A stretch of 42,391 bases of DNA, from assembly GCA_009786825.1 (NCBI GenBank), contig WQRI01000007.1:1-42391 (forward strand). The letters are read 5' to 3'. This document shows, piece by piece, positions 29,863 through 38,077 of this stretch (its first letter is position 1; every line of letters begins with the position of its first letter). Source of the DNA: Bacillota bacterium. Lineage in GTDB: Bacteria; Bacillota; Clostridia; Christensenellales; WQRI01. Both the position numbers and the translations under genes were made by a program. Under the pieces are notes generated by a model. That model saw only the letters and a program-made list of their open reading frames with translations, was not told where the DNA came from and searched no databases.

Positions 29863-30333
29863 TTACACGCCAAACTTGCCTTGTAGATTACAAGTATGCT
29901 CTTCACAACCAGCCACCAAACAAGTAAACTTCTCGGCTATACACTCTTCTGTGTTAAGTTTGCTTATAAGTTCTTCTAACTTTTGAGTTGTCTCGTGAGA
30001 GAGCGTATGCTCTATTTTACAAGCGTCTATTTCCGCTTGCGCCTCAGATACCCCCAAAAGTTTTGTTAAAAGCAACTTAATATTATCGTGCTTGCGCTTT
30101 ATAGACTTTGCTAAATTTATACCGCAGTCTGTAAGCGTAACCGCACCATAATCTTCTTTTTCTACATAGCCATACTCAATTAAAATATTAAGCGCTCTGT
30201 TAGTAGATGGCTTAGACACACCCAAATAATTAGCAATATCTACACTCTTAACTTTCATCTTGTTGTATTTAGACTTAATCGTGTAAATTGCCTCTAGATA
30301 ATCTTCACCACTTTTTTTAAGTGTTTTACTCAT
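29863..30333 (-). CDS. DtxR/MntR-family metal-dependent regulator
   Basis: GEDYLEAIYTI, VKSVDIANYLGVSKPSTNRALNILIEYGYVEKEDYGAVTLTDCGINLA, CKIEHTLSHETTQKLE. Confidence 0.92.
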   Translation of the reverse strand: MSKTLKKSGEDYLEAIYTIKSKYNKMKVKSVDIANYLGVSKPSTNRALNILIEYGYVEKEDYGAVTLTDCGINLAKSIKRKHDNIKLLLTKLLGVSEAQAEIDACKIEHTLSHETTQKLEELISKLNTEECIAEKFTCLVAGCEEHTCNLQGKFGV

Positions 30334-30340
30334 ACTTTCT

Positions 30341-30518
30341 TAATGAATAATGAACATTGAATAATGAATAATGGTTGCATTCATTAAATGCTCTACGTCT
30401 GAACAGCCAGCGTTTTGGGTCACGGGGACGTCTTTCGCTGACCCAACTCTTAAGTTAATTTTATACCGCGCTAGCGGACGAAGCAATTGTTCAATGTTCA
30501 ATGTTCAGTGTTAAATGT
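30341..30518. repeat. Heptamer-arm intergenic element J
   Basis: Left aatgaat/aatgaac/attgaat/aatgaat/aatgg; right caattgttcaatgttcaatgttcagtgttaaatg; inner hairpin TTGGGTCA...TGACCCAA and core accgcgctagcgg. Confidence 0.78.
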
Positions 30519-30535
30519 TTCCCCAACTTAAAAAA

Positions 30536-30572
30536 GTTAGAATGCTCTAACCATATGTTAGCATATTCTAAC
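30536..30572. promoter_or_regulatory. Two tandem near-palindromic operator-like sites, candidate DtxR/MntR binding sites
   Basis: GTTAGAATGCTCTAAC-catat-GTTAGCATATTCTAAC upstream of the DtxR/MntR-type gene. Confidence 0.55.
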
Positions 30573-30708
30573 TTTTTTGTCAATACATTTTATGATATTA
30601 AAATCTAGAAAAGTCAATATATTTGCAGTAAGTTTTTTATTTTTTTGTAACTTTTTTTATAAGGGGTTTTTGTTAGGTGCAAGCGGTTGTTTGGTAGAGA
30701 GTGCCTTT

Positions 30709-30949
30709 GGTAATGCGAAAACCTTTGTAATGGGCATTACCCCCTACTAGTAGGGGGTAAAAATTGGCTTTAGATAATTTGTTCTTTTTATTCTGTTTGT
30801 TTTTGGATATCTTTAGACAGCGGACACAAATCCGAAAAACAAACAGAACGCTATGTGGCGAAAGATATTCCCTAGACAAGTTGCGCCACAATCAACTTGT
30901 CCCCTTTCCGTCTATCACCCTAGCCGTGAGACGTGTCTTGCAGACGGCT
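30709..30949. other. Densely nested inverted-repeat region
   Basis: GGTAATGC/GCATTACC; TTACCCCCTACT|AGTAGGGGGTAA; TTCTGTTTGTTTTTGGAT/ATCCGAAAAACAAACAGAA; TGTGGCG/CGCCACA; GACAAGTTG/CAACTTGTC; AGCCGT/ACGGCT. Confidence 0.75.
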
Positions 30950-32158
30950 TTATATTTCTAGTCTTGGTTTTGGATATGGATTTAATGGTGGTTGTTCTAT
31001 ATGTCGCATAACTGGTACATCTGATTGTGGTCTAAGTTTATACTTACCAGTTTGATTATCGCGCGCTATAAAACGTATTCTTTTTATTATTCGCTTTTCT
31101 AGTTTTGTACTTTCTACATCAGTTTTATTTCTTGCTTGTAGCGGTTTGTCTTGTTTTGATTTTACTTCGAATTCTAGATTTAAGTTATTTTGTTGCTCTG
31201 CTAATTGTTCTAAAAATTCTGCACGCTTTTGAATAGGGCTTTGCCACGTTTGTTTGCCAAATCGATTACGTATTGCAGAATGTGGTTTATTATTATATCT
31301 TTTGTTCCAAATTTCTAACTCACGCCTTAGTTCTGCTAATGTTGAAAATTTTAGATTGCTGTAAAATTTATTGTCTGTTCTATGCGAGCGCTCTACTTTT
31401 CCGTTGTGCCTTGGTGTATAAGGTCTTATAAGCATATGTCTAATACGAAGTTTATTAACTAACTTTGTTATAAGGTGTATTTTGTTTTCACCCGTTCCTT
31501 TTGGATGCACAAATGCGTAGTCATTGTCTGATTGAATTATGTATGGTAAATAGCCAAAGTACATTAAAGCGCGTTGAACAAAATCGTAGGCTGAATTTGA
31601 ACATTTATTTGCATATGGATAAATAAAACGTTCGCGAGTAGCCTCATCTATCATAGTAAATTGATAAAATCTTATATCGTGTATCTTACCTATATAGCAT
31701 TCTTTGGGTACGTATTTAATATCTATTTGCGTTTTTATACCTAGCATAGTAGGCGTATTATAATTTTTGCTGATGTGCTTTATTATGAGTTGTGGCGCTA
31801 CCAGATGTGACAAATTCTTTTTAATAAACTTATTAAGTGCCGGTAATGTTCGCGCGTAGGCATATTTCAAACGTAGCATTCCGTATAACTCTGCTCTACT
31901 TACTGTTGGGTTCTGATGTAGCAATCTTTCTATTGCCTTACGTTCTTTTCTTGTGTGCGCATTCGGATGTCTTTTTCGTGGCTTGCTTGTATCGCGTTTT
32001 AAACTCTCAGGTGTGCCTTTCCAGCGTGATTTCCAATACCAGAGCGCACGCTCGCAACAATTATGCTCTGCCATCACACGCTGTATGCTTTTCTTTTCAA
32101 CTAGCCATTTGGCTAATGCATTGTGCTTTTGCTTTGGTGTTAACTGTTTTAATTTCAT
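30950..32158 (-). CDS. DDE transposase/integrase-core protein (IS481-like or related)
   Basis: HTH N-terminus then IDIKYVP (D), IIQSDNDYAF (D), TPRHNGKVERSHRTDNKFYSNL (E). Confidence 0.85.
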   Translation of the reverse strand: MKLKQLTPKQKHNALAKWLVEKKSIQRVMAEHNCCERALWYWKSRWKGTPESLKRDTSKPRKRHPNAHTRKERKAIERLLHQNPTVSRAELYGMLRLKYAYARTLPALNKFIKKNLSHLVAPQLIIKHISKNYNTPTMLGIKTQIDIKYVPKECYIGKIHDIRFYQFTMIDEATRERFIYPYANKCSNSAYDFVQRALMYFGYLPYIIQSDNDYAFVHPKGTGENKIHLITKLVNKLRIRHMLIRPYTPRHNGKVERSHRTDNKFYSNLKFSTLAELRRELEIWNKRYNNKPHSAIRNRFGKQTWQSPIQKRAEFLEQLAEQQNNLNLEFEVKSKQDKPLQARNKTDVESTKLEKRIIKRIRFIARDNQTGKYKLRPQSDVPVMRHIEQPPLNPYPKPRLEI

Positions 32159-32301: not shown

Positions 32302-33000
32302 ATGGCTGAATATCAAGGGAATTATTGTCTAATATGTGGCTATCAGAGCAAACAGTACACCTATTGCTACATCTGCTCGCAAGCTAGAGAACTTGACAAA
32401 ATATTATTTTGCAAAGAATGCAACTACTATTATTTAAAACACCAAGAATGCAAATGTGAAGTTGTTGTTGAGCGCTCTTCACTTTGCGTAGTTTGCGGAA
32501 CTCAATCTGCTGGATATTGGTTTTGTAAAAGTTGTTACAAAAAATATAGTAATAAGGTAGTTGCTATTGAATTTACAAACTGCACTCAGTCGAGCGTTTT
32601 AGAAGAAGGTTACAAAGCAAAACACTTTCTTAAAAATGGTAGAAATGTAAGAAGCACTCACGAGCAACTTATTGGCAATATGCTTATAGATTTAGGCATT
32701 GAGTTTGAATATGAAAAGGTGATACAGACTTCTGCAAATGTAAAGGACGATATTAAACCCGATTTTTATCTTGTTGAACATAATGCATTTTTAGAACATT
32801 TTGGAATAGAAGATAAAGGTAGATACGCCGCTAGCAAACAGTTTAAGTTAGACAAATATAAAGAAATGGGGCTTACAATCATATATACACAAGCAAAAGA
32901 TTTAGCAGATTTGCCTAATAGGTTGCCAAGGCTAATTAAATTCCACGAGAAAAACAAAATAAACTACTTAGATGATACTGGTAATGTTAAACAAGAGTGA
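32302..33000 (+). CDS. Zinc-ribbon protein with C-terminal PD-(D/E)XK-like nuclease domain
   Basis: Multiple CxxC pairs in the N-terminal half; C-terminal STHEQLIGNMLIDLGIEFEYEK...IKPDFYLVEHNAFLEHFGIEDKGRY...KLDKYKEMGLTIIYT resembles helicase-associated PDF...E(H/Y)FG nuclease folds. Confidence 0.6.
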   Translation: MAEYQGNYCLICGYQSKQYTYCYICSQARELDKILFCKECNYYYLKHQECKCEVVVERSSLCVVCGTQSAGYWFCKSCYKKYSNKVVAIEFTNCTQSSVLEEGYKAKHFLKNGRNVRSTHEQLIGNMLIDLGIEFEYEKVIQTSANVKDDIKPDFYLVEHNAFLEHFGIEDKGRYAASKQFKLDKYKEMGLTIIYTQAKDLADLPNRLPRLIKFHEKNKINYLDDTGNVKQE

Positions 33001-33478
33001 TTTGTAATTCTGATTCTGATTATACTTTGCTTTAGTTGTTTGTTTTGCTTTGGTTTTTTTTCTTTGGTCTGATTTTTGACTCTCTGCGTTATACACAAGG
33101 TGGGGTTATGTTCTTTATGGCTTTGGTTACATTAACTCCATAACACACAGGTTATAGGAAGTTTTTTGGGCTTGTTGGTCGCGCACCGTTCTAAAATTCC
33201 GTGATATTGGTGTCTTCCGCAATGGGTGATTTCCACGAGAATTTTTTCACTATTATTCGCCGCAATGGGTGAATTTAAGATTTCGGTTTTCTTTGGCGAA
33301 TTACGCGGGGTCGTTTGAGAATTTTTTAGTTTTTTTGCAGAAAACGGGGTGGGGTCTTTTCGTATGGTCTGATTTTGGCACTCTAGCATAGGCAAAGCGG
33401 TTATTTGCGTTGTGTGCTTTTATTTTAGGGCTTTTGTAGTCCTTTTTGTTTGTTGTTTATGGCTTGAGAGAATTACAC

Positions 33479-33524
33479 GCACGTTATTATTATCAAGAGG
33501 CGCGCTTCGCGCGCCTTACGTGCC
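33479..33524. other. Strong GC hairpin in nested inverted repeat
   Basis: AGGCGCGC-TTC-GCGCGCCT flanked by GCACGT...ACGTGC. Confidence 0.7.
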
Positions 33525-33559
33525 TAATTCTGCCATATAAGTACCAAAATGCCAATAAC

Positions 33560-33604
33560 AAAGAGAGGTGGTTTCCGCTATTCGCTTTAAAACCACCTCT
33601 CTTT
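33560..33604. other. Perfect 15-bp stem-loop downstream of rep
   Basis: AAAGAGAGGTGGTTT - ccgctattcgcttta - AAACCACCTCTCTTT. Confidence 0.85.
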
Positions 33605-33714: not shown

Positions 33715-35265
33715 TTACATCACAAAAGTTATCTGTTCTATCACTTCTGCTTTTTTTGCAGGAAGTGGAACTGGCTCTGGTAGTCTTCCAAAGTCTATCA
33801 TTTGTTTAAATGTAATCTGTGTTTTAGGTTTTGACAGCAATAAAGGTTCTTGCTTTTTCTTTTTAGGGTTGCCTTTGGTTCTTACGTTTTTGATATCTTC
33901 ATCGGTTATAACTTCGTGTGATAATATGAACGATTTTATTGTTTCTGAATTTCTGTAGTAAACCGGCAGTTTGAATTGTTTTTGCGATATATCTTTAATC
34001 AGATGCGCGGGCAAGCCTCTGCTGTAAACTGTGCTTTCGGTTGCCTTTGTCATATACTTTAGTATGTAGTTTACAAGTGGGTTATTTAGGTTTTTAAGTG
34101 AAATATCTACTTCCACTATGTGTTGCCAATCGTTTATGCCGTAGGCTTTTTTGAAAAAAGCACACTCTAACCTTTGCGTTTTTCTTCTTCTTACGGGGTC
34201 GTATCTCTTTTTTGTGGGCTTCAACTCAGACATCATTTGTCCAGTCGGAACATACACAAGCATATGAAAATGAAGCCTACCCTTGTGGTAACCTACACTT
34301 TGGCAATACTTGCAAAGGTTGTCTTTTTCGCAATATCCCCTACCATATTCAAACACGCCCATTTGCTTCCAGCCTTTTCTGTCTGCGTTATTTGCTAGTG
34401 TTCTTAAAAGTTTTTCCCTGAAAACTTCTTCTGCTTGTACCTTTGTAAGTTCGCCCGTTGGGTTAAAAATCTTGTCGTTCATAGTTATAGTTGCAAAATA
34501 GTTAAAGTTATTAAGTTGGGCTTTTTGTCTGAACAACCTTAGTCGTTTATTAAAGTTTCTTGCCTTGCGTTTGATTACTTTTTCTACAAAACTTAAAAGT
34601 TCTAAATACTCTTCAGACTTTTTAAAATTTTCGTTATCCGCTTCATTATAATAGAAATTATCTATCAGACCATCGATTACGTATTGACGCTGTTGTTCTT
34701 TACCCTTTTTTGTACTTACTTTAAAAAGGTGTAAACTCTCGGCAAAAAAATAATCTAACACTAACTCTCTGTTATCAACTTTTCTTGTCTTTAGTCTTGC
34801 AAGTTTCTTTTTAATTAGCGTGTCCAGTTGTTCAGTATAATATCTATCTTTAGAATAAAGTAATATGTACGCCGACTTTATGCCCTCAAACACTCTGCTT
34901 AAATTGCCTTGCGCTATTTTGTTCTCGCTATCTAACTCGCTAAAGAAATTATCTATACTACCAAAAGTTAACTTAATTCGCTCTATATGCCAATCAAAAT
35001 GTCTATCTACCAAAGCCTTTCTTTCTTCACAAACTATCCAAGGTAGCATTAACGGGTGGTGTCCATCCATTTGCACCTTATGTGTTGTAAAACTTATTTC
35101 GCCCGGTTGCTCTAAGCCGAATTGCCCGTACATATCCGCTTCTAAAGCAAGCATAAGTTGTTCTTTTTCTACTTCCCCTAAAGTGTTTATATATGTTTCG
35201 TAAGCCGCATAGTTTTCAGCGTTCAGATAACTTTTAACCTTTTTTACAATCTCTTTATTTGTCAT
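33715..35265 (-). CDS. HUH-superfamily rolling-circle replication initiator
   Basis: Motif 1 FNYFATITMND; Cys pairs CEKDNLCKYC; HUH motif GRLHFHMLVYV; tyrosine motif VNYILKYMTKATE. Confidence 0.85.
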   Translation of the reverse strand: MTNKEIVKKVKSYLNAENYAAYETYINTLGEVEKEQLMLALEADMYGQFGLEQPGEISFTTHKVQMDGHHPLMLPWIVCEERKALVDRHFDWHIERIKLTFGSIDNFFSELDSENKIAQGNLSRVFEGIKSAYILLYSKDRYYTEQLDTLIKKKLARLKTRKVDNRELVLDYFFAESLHLFKVSTKKGKEQQRQYVIDGLIDNFYYNEADNENFKKSEEYLELLSFVEKVIKRKARNFNKRLRLFRQKAQLNNFNYFATITMNDKIFNPTGELTKVQAEEVFREKLLRTLANNADRKGWKQMGVFEYGRGYCEKDNLCKYCQSVGYHKGRLHFHMLVYVPTGQMMSELKPTKKRYDPVRRRKTQRLECAFFKKAYGINDWQHIVEVDISLKNLNNPLVNYILKYMTKATESTVYSRGLPAHLIKDISQKQFKLPVYYRNSETIKSFILSHEVITDEDIKNVRTKGNPKKKKQEPLLLSKPKTQITFKQMIDFGRLPEPVPLPAKKAEVIEQITFVM

Positions 35266-35839: not shown

Positions 35840-38077
35840 CTATTTCGCATTCTTAAAATGTTGTTCTTCTGAATGCTCTTGTGTGATTTCAGTTATAAAG
35901 TTGCTCCCTTGCCACATTAGTTGGTCTTCTGTAGCCTTATGAGATGTATATTTCGGCAAGTCGTTTATACCCTTAGTTGTACTGTCCATACGCTCTGAAA
36001 ACATATCACTATAAGCGTCTGTTGCAAACCTATCCGAGTATATCTTTTTGTTAGAAAGATAATATTTGCGGTTAACACTCCAGCCATCCAGCCTACCTTT
36101 TTCTACCTTGAGTTTTATTACTCTGTAGCCAAATCTGTTGTATGTATGTTTATAGCGCTGGTGGTTGATAGCGCCAACTTTTTTAATGGTATGCATTAGC
36201 AAAGTATTATCACCCCTATTAACTCTAAACTGCTTGTACAGTCTTTGAAAGCGCGCGTGAATAAAATTGTATATAAGTTCGCCAATAAAGAAAAATGGTT
36301 TGGCTAGGCGCATTTCGCTTTTGTCTTCTATTCTAACTATTTCGGCAAGTTCTCTTGCATCTGCCCCTAAACTTTGTTCTCTCTGCTCATCCATAACAAT
36401 ACGCACAAATGGGAAGCCGGCTACTGTAGCCTTGTGTCTGATTAACTTAATTGCTTCAGTAACCTTACCATATAGATATGCCAAATATTGTCTAAGGCGT
36501 TGTCTCTCTTGTGATGTATCCAAATAGTCCTTTTCTAACTTTTTTACTGTTGCCCTTATCTCTTTTAATAGGTCTGTTATTTCTTTCTGCTTATATTGAT
36601 TGCCAAGTTCTTTGCCTATCTCTGTAATAGACATTATGCCAAACTCAAATATCTCAGCATAAGGATTATCCTTTAAAACCTTGAAGCCCAAGCGCAACAT
36701 ATCAAAATGCAATACATTAGAATACCTAGAATGCAAATGCATTCTCTTAGCAGACCTGTTAAAAAAATCTAAATCCCACTCTGGTAAATTGCCTTCGTCG
36801 TCCATTATGAAGTCTGTCCTAATTGCGTGATTTGAAATTATAAGGCTACTTTTTATTATGTAAATAAAGTAAAGTTTTGCATAATCACTAAGTTCTGAAA
36901 ATAGATGTCTGATGTTCTTTTTACTGTCATACTCTAAACCATATTTCTTATAATCATAATCAAAGCAAGCACCGCCTTTTTTAAATCTGTTGTGCTTTTT
37001 CTTTATCCACTTTTCTACTGTACGTAGGTTATATACGTGACCAAATTTTATAGCGCGCTTAAGTTCGTTCTCTAAGTTTATCCAAGGGAAATATGGGAAT
37101 TTCAAGTCTATCTCTAACATCATATCGTATGCCGTTTGTCTGAACCACGCTTCTAAACTCAATGATACATCTACCTTTAGAGTTGTTTTGCCTAGCCCCA
37201 TCTCTCCTACAAACATAAACGCTATTTGCCTTTCTCTTATAAAGCCTTTGTTCCTTGCCTCAAAGCGTCTTAGCCAAGCAAGCGCCCTACCCTTGCGCCA
37301 CATATCTAGTTTGTAATAAACAATTGCAACAGCAATTGGAACAGTTAAAGGGTGTAACATAAAGCGTATGGCGGGCATTAAATCTAGCACAGTTTTATAA
37401 ACAAAATGGTAAATTGCGGCAACATCAAGTGACACAAAAAAGTAAAGCAAAAAGCCAAATAGTGTTGCAACTATGCCAAAGATGTTAAAGTTTAAGAGCC
37501 AAATTAGCAACAAAATTTTTTTAAAGCGCGATGTATCGAAGTAATCTATAAAGCCAAATATGTAATTTTTTGTAGGTACGTACGTTTGCTCTGACACACG
37601 CTTTACTAGCGCTAGTTGTTTGCTGTCTACGTTATAATTGTTGTTTATACGGCTAAAATGGCGCTTAAAAAGCATATTAGCAACTAGCCACAGCGGAATT
37701 ACTAACATTAAAACCCTTGTCAGTATCTCTGTTGCTTGCCCTAAAACAATACTATATCTTGCCATATTTTGAGAGCAAATAAGTAAGTTTAAAAACTCTG
37801 AAAGATTACTTCTAAACTCTTCGGGCGTATCTGGTAGCACGTTAATATCTTGGTCGGGCGTAGCACTATCGGCGGGCGGAACTATCGGGCTAGCCTCCGG
37901 TATTATCCAAAAAAAGAATTGCACAAAACTAACTAGACCAAACCACAACTCCCTTAAACCCTCTAGCACTCTAAGCAAAGAATGGCTAAAAGCAGTAAGC
38001 ATAAAAAATATACTTACTGCTATTGCAATCACGCACAGTATCGCATAACTGTGTTTCTTTACAAAACTTTTAGCCAT
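35840..38077 (-). CDS. Membrane-anchored P-loop ATPase (Zot/pI-like or coupling-protein-like)
   Basis: N-terminal hydrophobic segments; Walker A FMFVGEMGLGKTTLK; Walker B-like FVRIVMDEQREQSLGADARELAEIV. Confidence 0.65.
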   Translation of the reverse strand: MAKSFVKKHSYAILCVIAIAVSIFFMLTAFSHSLLRVLEGLRELWFGLVSFVQFFFWIIPEASPIVPPADSATPDQDINVLPDTPEEFRSNLSEFLNLLICSQNMARYSIVLGQATEILTRVLMLVIPLWLVANMLFKRHFSRINNNYNVDSKQLALVKRVSEQTYVPTKNYIFGFIDYFDTSRFKKILLLIWLLNFNIFGIVATLFGFLLYFFVSLDVAAIYHFVYKTVLDLMPAIRFMLHPLTVPIAVAIVYYKLDMWRKGRALAWLRRFEARNKGFIRERQIAFMFVGEMGLGKTTLKVDVSLSLEAWFRQTAYDMMLEIDLKFPYFPWINLENELKRAIKFGHVYNLRTVEKWIKKKHNRFKKGGACFDYDYKKYGLEYDSKKNIRHLFSELSDYAKLYFIYIIKSSLIISNHAIRTDFIMDDEGNLPEWDLDFFNRSAKRMHLHSRYSNVLHFDMLRLGFKVLKDNPYAEIFEFGIMSITEIGKELGNQYKQKEITDLLKEIRATVKKLEKDYLDTSQERQRLRQYLAYLYGKVTEAIKLIRHKATVAGFPFVRIVMDEQREQSLGADARELAEIVRIEDKSEMRLAKPFFFIGELIYNFIHARFQRLYKQFRVNRGDNTLLMHTIKKVGAINHQRYKHTYNRFGYRVIKLKVEKGRLDGWSVNRKYYLSNKKIYSDRFATDAYSDMFSERMDSTTKGINDLPKYTSHKATEDQLMWQGSNFITEITQEHSEEQHFKNAK

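What the first reader, a model, noticed from the sequence alone, without database searches (positions are those of the whole stretch)
30709..30949. 240-bp region of nested, partly mutually exclusive inverted repeats at the likely left edge of the mobile DNA
At least six inverted repeats occur here, including 18-19-nt arms with a ~21-nt spacer (30791-30808/30830-30848) and alternative pairings (GGATATCTTT with AAAGATATTCC; TGTGGCG with CGCCACA around GACAAGTTG/CAACTTGTC). It lies just downstream of the transposase stop and no feature explains it. Options are a structured RNA, a single-strand recombination or transposon end, or a phage origin/packaging signal.
Basis: partly seen in the sequence, partly recalled or inferred. 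Interest (0 to 1): 0.65.

Follow-up and report, generated by a model that had tools for sequence, protein, structure and literature searches.

The report
Orphan hairpin cluster in phage end
Near one end of an integrated filamentous-phage-like virus, just after its transposase gene, lies a short non-coding stretch that folds back on itself far more than chance allows; no relative carries it, so its role is a guess, and the virus's recognisable replication hairpins sit about 2.6 kb away.

Summary
Window 30786-30925 holds four perfect, non-overlapping, interlocked inverted repeats (order 1-2-1'-3-2'-4-3'-4'). A helix score of 89 compares with a shuffle mean of 6.8 and maximum of 49 in 1000. Beside it lies a separate 24-bp loop-less palindrome (30737-30760).

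The region is not the edge of the mobile DNA. It lies inside a filamentous-phage (inovirus)-like prophage, between the stop of its IS481-like transposase and the element's conserved terminal sequence (30605-30699), which is shared with the ends of relatives (z = 5.9-7.3).

The hairpin segment itself has no detectable homologue: not in Rfam, not in 396 genomes of the order, not in related prophages, plasmids or phages. Covariation therefore cannot be tested. The family's conserved replication hairpins (a single-strand-origin-like loop AAGCG-TAGCG with covarying stems, plus a nick-site-like hairpin) lie elsewhere, at 33470-33604, and this phage has both.

Best reading: a lineage-specific cis-acting fold of the phage-sense single strand, either an accessory ssDNA origin/packaging-type element or, nearly as likely, a structured RNA 3' of the transposase. 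Template-switching scars are not excluded. Interest is modest because the feature is striking but unconserved.

The parts
30605..30699 (-). Conserved terminal sequence of the transposase-bearing element (...TTACTGCAAATATATTGAC at its outer end); the real edge of the mobile DNA
   Evidence: local alignment against L043, L045, L053 element ends, z 5.9, 7.3, 6.9, 0/200 shuffles; motif list
30737..30760 (.). Loop-less GC-rich palindrome TTACCCCCTACTAGTAGGGGGTAA, a counterpart of palindromes after the transposase in relatives (L043 TCTCTTCCCCTAGGGGAAGAGA, L057, L054, L083); no T-run here
30786..30925 (-). Orphan self-complementary segment, drawn on the phage-sense strand: 5' domain 30850-30925 (closing stem plus hairpin 4) and 3' hairpin 30790-30849
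   Evidence: no homologue
30791..30848 (-). Helix 1: 14-bp stem TTCTGTTTGTTTTT/AAAAACAAACAGAA, 30-nt loop
30807..30868 (-). Helix 2: ATATCTTT/AAAGATAT between the loop of helix 1 and the sequence outside it; weak as RNA
30854..30901 (-). Helices 3 and 4: potential H-type pseudoknot, S1 GACAAGTTG/CAACTTGTC 9 bp, L1 2 nt, S2 TGTGGCG/CGCCACA 7 bp, L2 0, L3 14 nt; the loop lengths suit the minus strand
30950..32158 (-). IS481-like DDE (rve) transposase, the presumed integration gene of the prophage
   Evidence: relatives beside Zot and G2P Rep genes
33470..33530 (-). Nick-site-like (double-strand-origin-like) hairpin GGCACG...CTTGATAATAATAACGTGCG, conserved in family
33560..33604 (-). Single-strand-origin-like hairpin with loop TAAAGCGAATAGCGG; loop conserved and stem covarying across the family
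33715..35265 (-). G2P-like rolling-circle Rep
   Evidence: PF23343, below cut-off; homologues above cut-off in L128, L057, L053, L061
35840..38077 (-). Large membrane P-loop ATPase, Zot/pI-like by position and Walker A (FVGEMGLGKTT)
   Evidence: sequence read; family in 47/337 genomes of the order; no Pfam/PHROG match

Best explanation
The flagged region is the non-coding 3' end of an inovirus-like prophage, between its IS481-like transposase gene and the element's terminal sequence. It has two parts: a palindrome plus terminal sequence that related elements also have, and a 140-nt densely self-complementary segment found only in this phage. The segment most likely acts in cis as a folded single strand of phage (sense = window minus) polarity, as an accessory ssDNA element of the rolling-circle/packaging cycle (complementary-strand start or packaging-type hairpins), added to the conserved origin hairpins at 33.5 kb. 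Shown: the fold is non-random, its place inside the element, its absence from relatives, and the separate conserved origin module. Inferred: that it is functional, that the ssDNA form is the active one, and which step it serves.
For: Helix density far above shuffles and folding z about -5 to -6 with DNA parameters on both strands. It lies within a prophage that carries a G2P-type Rep, a P-loop membrane ATPase and pIII-like and Big_2 surface proteins; the same transposase family sits beside a bona fide Zot (PF05707) and G2P Rep in L053 and beside Rep and the ATPase in L055-L058 and L061. The helices named in the finding are pure Watson-Crick, as expected for a DNA-level feature. The pseudoknot loop lengths suit the sense strand, which filamentous phages package (family knowledge; for the geometry).
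Against: No homologue anywhere searched. The family's origin hairpins are elsewhere and present in this phage. A CS-6-like TAGCGT occurs in the segment, but not in a hairpin loop and well within chance. No direct sign of packaging or priming.
Confidence: 0.36

Rival explanations
1. A structured RNA of the minus strand: the 3' untranslated region of the transposase transcript, or, in the excised circle, a leader before the first phage genes, with a hub sequence (30854-30872) that can pair with three partners (closing stem, pseudoknot, helix 2).
For: Minus-strand RNA fold -47.5 kcal/mol, z -4.9. The H-type pseudoknot has feasible loop lengths on the minus strand; one such GC-rich case was found in 1.03 Mb of strand searched. 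No terminator-like site between the transposase stop and the segment. The minus fold uses 5 G-U pairs against 1 on the plus strand.
Against: No Rfam match at gathering, only chance-level matches at E up to 10. No homologue or covariation. The plus strand has an equally extreme z (-5.5), so the strand is not determined. By a rough energy estimate the pseudoknot is weaker than the nested closing stem.
Confidence: 0.3
2. No function: inverted repeats left by intrastrand template switching during ssDNA replication of this one phage lineage, retained in a non-coding gap.
For: The segment is unique to this copy. The arms are perfect Watson-Crick, as copied sequence would be. Relatives have a shorter gap here (L043: element end 186 nt after the stop against about 333 nt in the window).
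Against: Four interlocked helices would need several independent events, and 0/1000 shuffles approach the score.
Confidence: 0.26
3. Transposase-binding or recombination end of the element (subterminal repeats or a folded ssDNA end).
For: It lies within about 330 bp of the element end, and the transposase family is always close to its end.
Against: Elements with 38-60% identical transposases keep the terminal sequence and often a palindrome, but none has this segment. DDE transposases use dsDNA ends (family knowledge).
Confidence: 0.05

Closest known systems
Intergenic hairpin region of filamentous phages (M13/f1 hairpins A-E: packaging signal, minus and plus origins)
   Same: Several stable hairpins in a non-coding stretch of a phage with G2P-type Rep and a morphogenesis ATPase
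   Different: In this family the recognisable origin hairpins are a separate module at 33.5 kb after rep; the flagged segment follows the transposase and is not conserved. The M13 comparison is from memory
ssoA-type single-strand origins of rolling-circle plasmids (CS-6, TAGCGA/T in a hairpin loop; described in PMC10378824)
   Same: The conserved hairpin at 33560-33604 presents TAGCG in its loop in the window and in 11 other phage loci
   Different: In the flagged segment TAGCGT is outside any loop. In the window's conserved loop the sixth base is G, not A/T
IS481 family transposase elements (NF033577)
   Same: DDE/rve transposase with best match to IS481 (124 bits)
   Different: Below the family cut-off (224 bits), part of an inovirus genome, element at least 11.8 kb (cut by the contig end)
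Inoviruses with domesticated transposases (Roux et al. 2019, PMC6813254)
   Same: Inovirus genome with a transposase as integration gene
   Different: Lineage with a ~745-aa ATPase that Pfam and PHROGs do not recognise

Membership tests
Inovirus-like prophage | Zot/pI-type morphogenesis ATPase | tested here: inconclusive
   Walker A and N-terminal membrane segments by reading, but no Pfam/PHROG match for the window's protein. A true Zot (PF05707, 3.9e-7) with the same transposase family is in L053
Inovirus-like prophage | G2P-type rolling-circle Rep | tested here: met
   window Rep PF23343 1.4e-4, below cut-off; its homologues L128 2.7e-9, L057 5.4e-10, L061 4.6e-10 are above cut-off
Inovirus-like prophage | Filamentous virion / ssDNA packaging | not testable with these tools
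   needs culture or virion DNA
IS481 family | Curated score for an IS481 transposase | tested here: not met
   NF033577 124 bits against cut-off 224; rve domains present
IS481 family | Short terminal inverted repeats and target duplication | tested here: inconclusive
   no convincing inverted repeat pair found; the window's other end is off the contig
Known Rfam RNA family | Match at or above the gathering score | tested here: not met
   0 matches in the whole window; best sub-threshold matches are chance-level
ssoA-type single-strand origin (flagged segment) | CS-6 TAGCG(A/T) in the loop of a hairpin | tested here: not met
   TAGCGT just before helix 1 on the minus strand lies between helices, not in a loop
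ssoA-type single-strand origin (33560-33604) | CS-6 in a hairpin loop, stem kept by compensating changes | tested here: inconclusive
   TAGCG in the loop of all 12 hairpins examined (not all phage loci carry it); stems pair better than with arms swapped (94 against 65.9, sd 4.4); sixth base in the window is G; function untested
Conserved structured RNA/DNA (flagged segment) | Homologues with covariation | tested here: not met
   covariance model finds only the window in 396 genomes; one weak hit in related loci lies in a coding gene

The most novel reading that the evidence does not exclude
A phage-lineage-specific folded element in which one hub strand (30854-30872) can pair with three partners: an upstream closing stem, a pseudoknot with hairpin 4, and the loop of hairpin 1. 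It could act as a conformational switch of the phage-sense strand (RNA or ssDNA) between transposition/lysogeny and rolling-circle replication or packaging.
Probability: 0.15. Interest if true: 0.6.

Novelty: new member of a known kind. Interest (0 to 1): 0.3.

Why it matters
If functional, the segment would show that transposase-integrated inoviruses add extra cis-acting folds beside their standard origin hairpins. More solid is the by-product: a conserved pair of origin-like hairpins and a widespread, profile-invisible morphogenesis ATPase define an inovirus family present in 47 of 337 sampled genomes of this bacterial order. For the flagged segment alone, with no second copy, the significance is limited.

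Tried and rejected
Rfam: no match. Similarity to phages and plasmids: only A/T-rich chance pieces; the longer 1.7-kb query also found nothing in phages. Exact pattern GTGGCGCAACTTGTCNAGG in viral contigs: three hits without the hairpin context, chance. Covariance model from the single sequence: only itself in 396 genomes; a weak hit in L063 is inside a coding gene. Viral-contig scans with the transposase, ATPase, Rep and pIII-like proteins gave no close relative of this phage; a transposase alignment gave 29 distant loci, none seen to carry the segment. Long terminal inverted repeats: BLAST pairs fell inside genes or in A/T-rich sequence. The TTGACA motif as a direct repeat at both element ends was dropped, because the upstream copy in L043 is an ordinary promoter. 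A small ORF explanation: only short, unremarkable frames. tRNA/tmRNA: none. The M13-like 10-mer TGATAGACGG in the segment was not pursued (recalled sequence, chance-level).

Full report
WHAT IS THERE. Between 30791 and 30901 four perfect Watson-Crick helices use 76 of 111 bases without sharing any: 30791-30804/30835-30848 (14 bp), 30807-30814/30861-30868 (8 bp), 30854-30860/30884-30890 (7 bp), 30875-30883/30893-30901 (9 bp). Their order is 1-2-1'-3-2'-4-3'-4', so each interlocks with the next. With dinucleotide shuffles, the score of non-overlapping helices of 7 bp or more in 30785-30910 is 89 against a mean of 6.8, sd 9.9, maximum 49 in 1000. Folding of the 140-nt core gives z of -4.9 (minus) and -5.5 (plus) with RNA and -5.1 and -5.9 with DNA parameters. 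A separate loop-less 24-bp palindrome lies at 30737-30760.

WHERE IT LIES. The gene upstream on the minus strand (30950-32158) is a DDE transposase closest to IS481. Behind it come a nuclease-like gene (32302-33000), a G2P-like Rep (33715-35265), a large membrane P-loop ATPase (35840-38077), a pIII-like protein and Big_2 proteins, up to the contig end. Homologous sets of ATPase, Rep and transposase occur together in L055, L056, L057, L058 and L061. In L053 the same transposase family stands beside a Zot protein above the Pfam cut-off and a G2P Rep. The window's right part is therefore an inovirus-like prophage with a transposase as its probable integration gene, a known arrangement (PMC6813254).

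THE REAL EDGE. Relatives carry a conserved terminal sequence, usually 170-260 nt after the transposase stop, of the form TTACTGCAAAATGCTTGACA. In the window it is at 30605-30699, about 333 nt after the stop; it aligns with the ends of L043, L045 and L053 with z of 5.9, 7.3 and 6.9, no shuffle reaching the score. The first coordinate of the finding is thus about 100 bp inside the element. A GC-rich loop-less palindrome after the transposase recurs in L043, L057, L054 and L083. The segment 30786-30925 itself matches none of the 17 element ends compared.

NO HOMOLOGUE. Rfam gives nothing. A covariance model of the segment finds only the window in 396 genomes of the same order and, in 0.6 Mb of related loci, one weak match that lies inside a coding gene. 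Distant BLAST against plasmids and phages gives only A/T-rich chance pieces. The nearest element (L043/L014/L063, a Bacillota MAG, Lab288P1bin55; transposase 59-60% identical) lacks it. Two other phages of the same lineage in the same genome (contigs C4 and C25, pIII-like 52-57% identical) show no similar sequence. Covariation therefore cannot be tested.

THE PHAGE'S OWN ORIGIN IS ELSEWHERE. Downstream of rep, the family has a hairpin whose loop reads AAGCG-N(2-3)-TAGCG. A motif scan found it with a stem of at least 5 bp in 13 loci, and the window has a variant with a shorter spacer. Twelve representative hairpins pair far better with their own partner arm than with arms swapped between phages (94 pairs against 65.9, sd 4.4). 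The TAGCG resembles the CS-6 site of plasmid single-strand origins (PMC10378824). Next to it lies a second hairpin followed by CTTGATAATA(ATA)ACGTGCG, conserved between the window and L128. In the window these are 33560-33604 and 33470-33530, and they include two of the most strongly folded stretches of the 42 kb. The flagged segment is not this origin.

HOW IT MAY WORK. Two readings are close. As ssDNA of the packaged sense strand it could be an accessory priming or packaging-type fold: the repeats that define it are pure Watson-Crick and the context is an ssDNA phage. As RNA it would be the transposase 3' UTR or, in the circle, a leader: the helix 3/4 pair makes a classical H-type pseudoknot only on the minus strand (9-bp S1, 2-nt L1, 7-bp S2, no L2, 14-nt L3), a combination found once with that GC content in 1.03 Mb of strand. 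However, the nested fold is estimated to be more stable than the pseudoknot (the pseudoknot penalty is an assumption), and z-scores do not choose the strand. Non-functional template-switch scars are the third possibility. I put 0.36, 0.30 and 0.26 on these.

VERDICT. A real, statistically strong but unconserved fold inside a known kind of element. It is not a transposon junction and not the phage's main origin. Interest is modest until a second copy is found.

Noticed in passing
33470-33604: Two conserved origin-like hairpins after rep (loop AAGCG-TAGCG with covarying stem; nick-site-like CTTGATAATAATAACGTGCG), shared across an inovirus family of this order.
   Followed up: partly
35840-38077; relatives L129-L145: A ~745-aa membrane P-loop ATPase with no Pfam/PHROG match, present in 47 of 337 sampled genomes of the order: a widespread inovirus lineage invisible to profile libraries.
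   Followed up: partly
L127 (own genome, contig C4): 4111-5241 and 6394-8073: A phage of the same lineage with a circovirus-like Rep (PF02407 Viral_Rep) and a serine integrase instead of G2P Rep and transposase: module swapping within one host.
   Followed up: partly
30530-30578: 22-bp inverted repeat, 86% complementary, over the promoter of the DtxR/MntR-like gene 29863-30333, probably its operator.
   Followed up: no
30577-30617; L043, L046, L050, L052, L068, L070, L084: Ends of these transposase elements sit at or about 30 bp upstream of TTGACA promoter-like sites, suggesting a target preference for promoter regions, or an outward -35 at the element end.
   Followed up: partly
32302-33000: Cys-rich plus nuclease-like protein (weak Holliday-resolvase/endonuclease PHROG match), shared with the related phage loci L056, L058, L061, L134, L142, in different positions relative to the transposase.
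   Followed up: no
30330-30515: Short repeated AATGTTCAATGTTC / GAACATTGAATAATGAATAATGG runs flank a stretch between the DtxR-like gene and its operator, possibly a small host repeat element.
   Followed up: no
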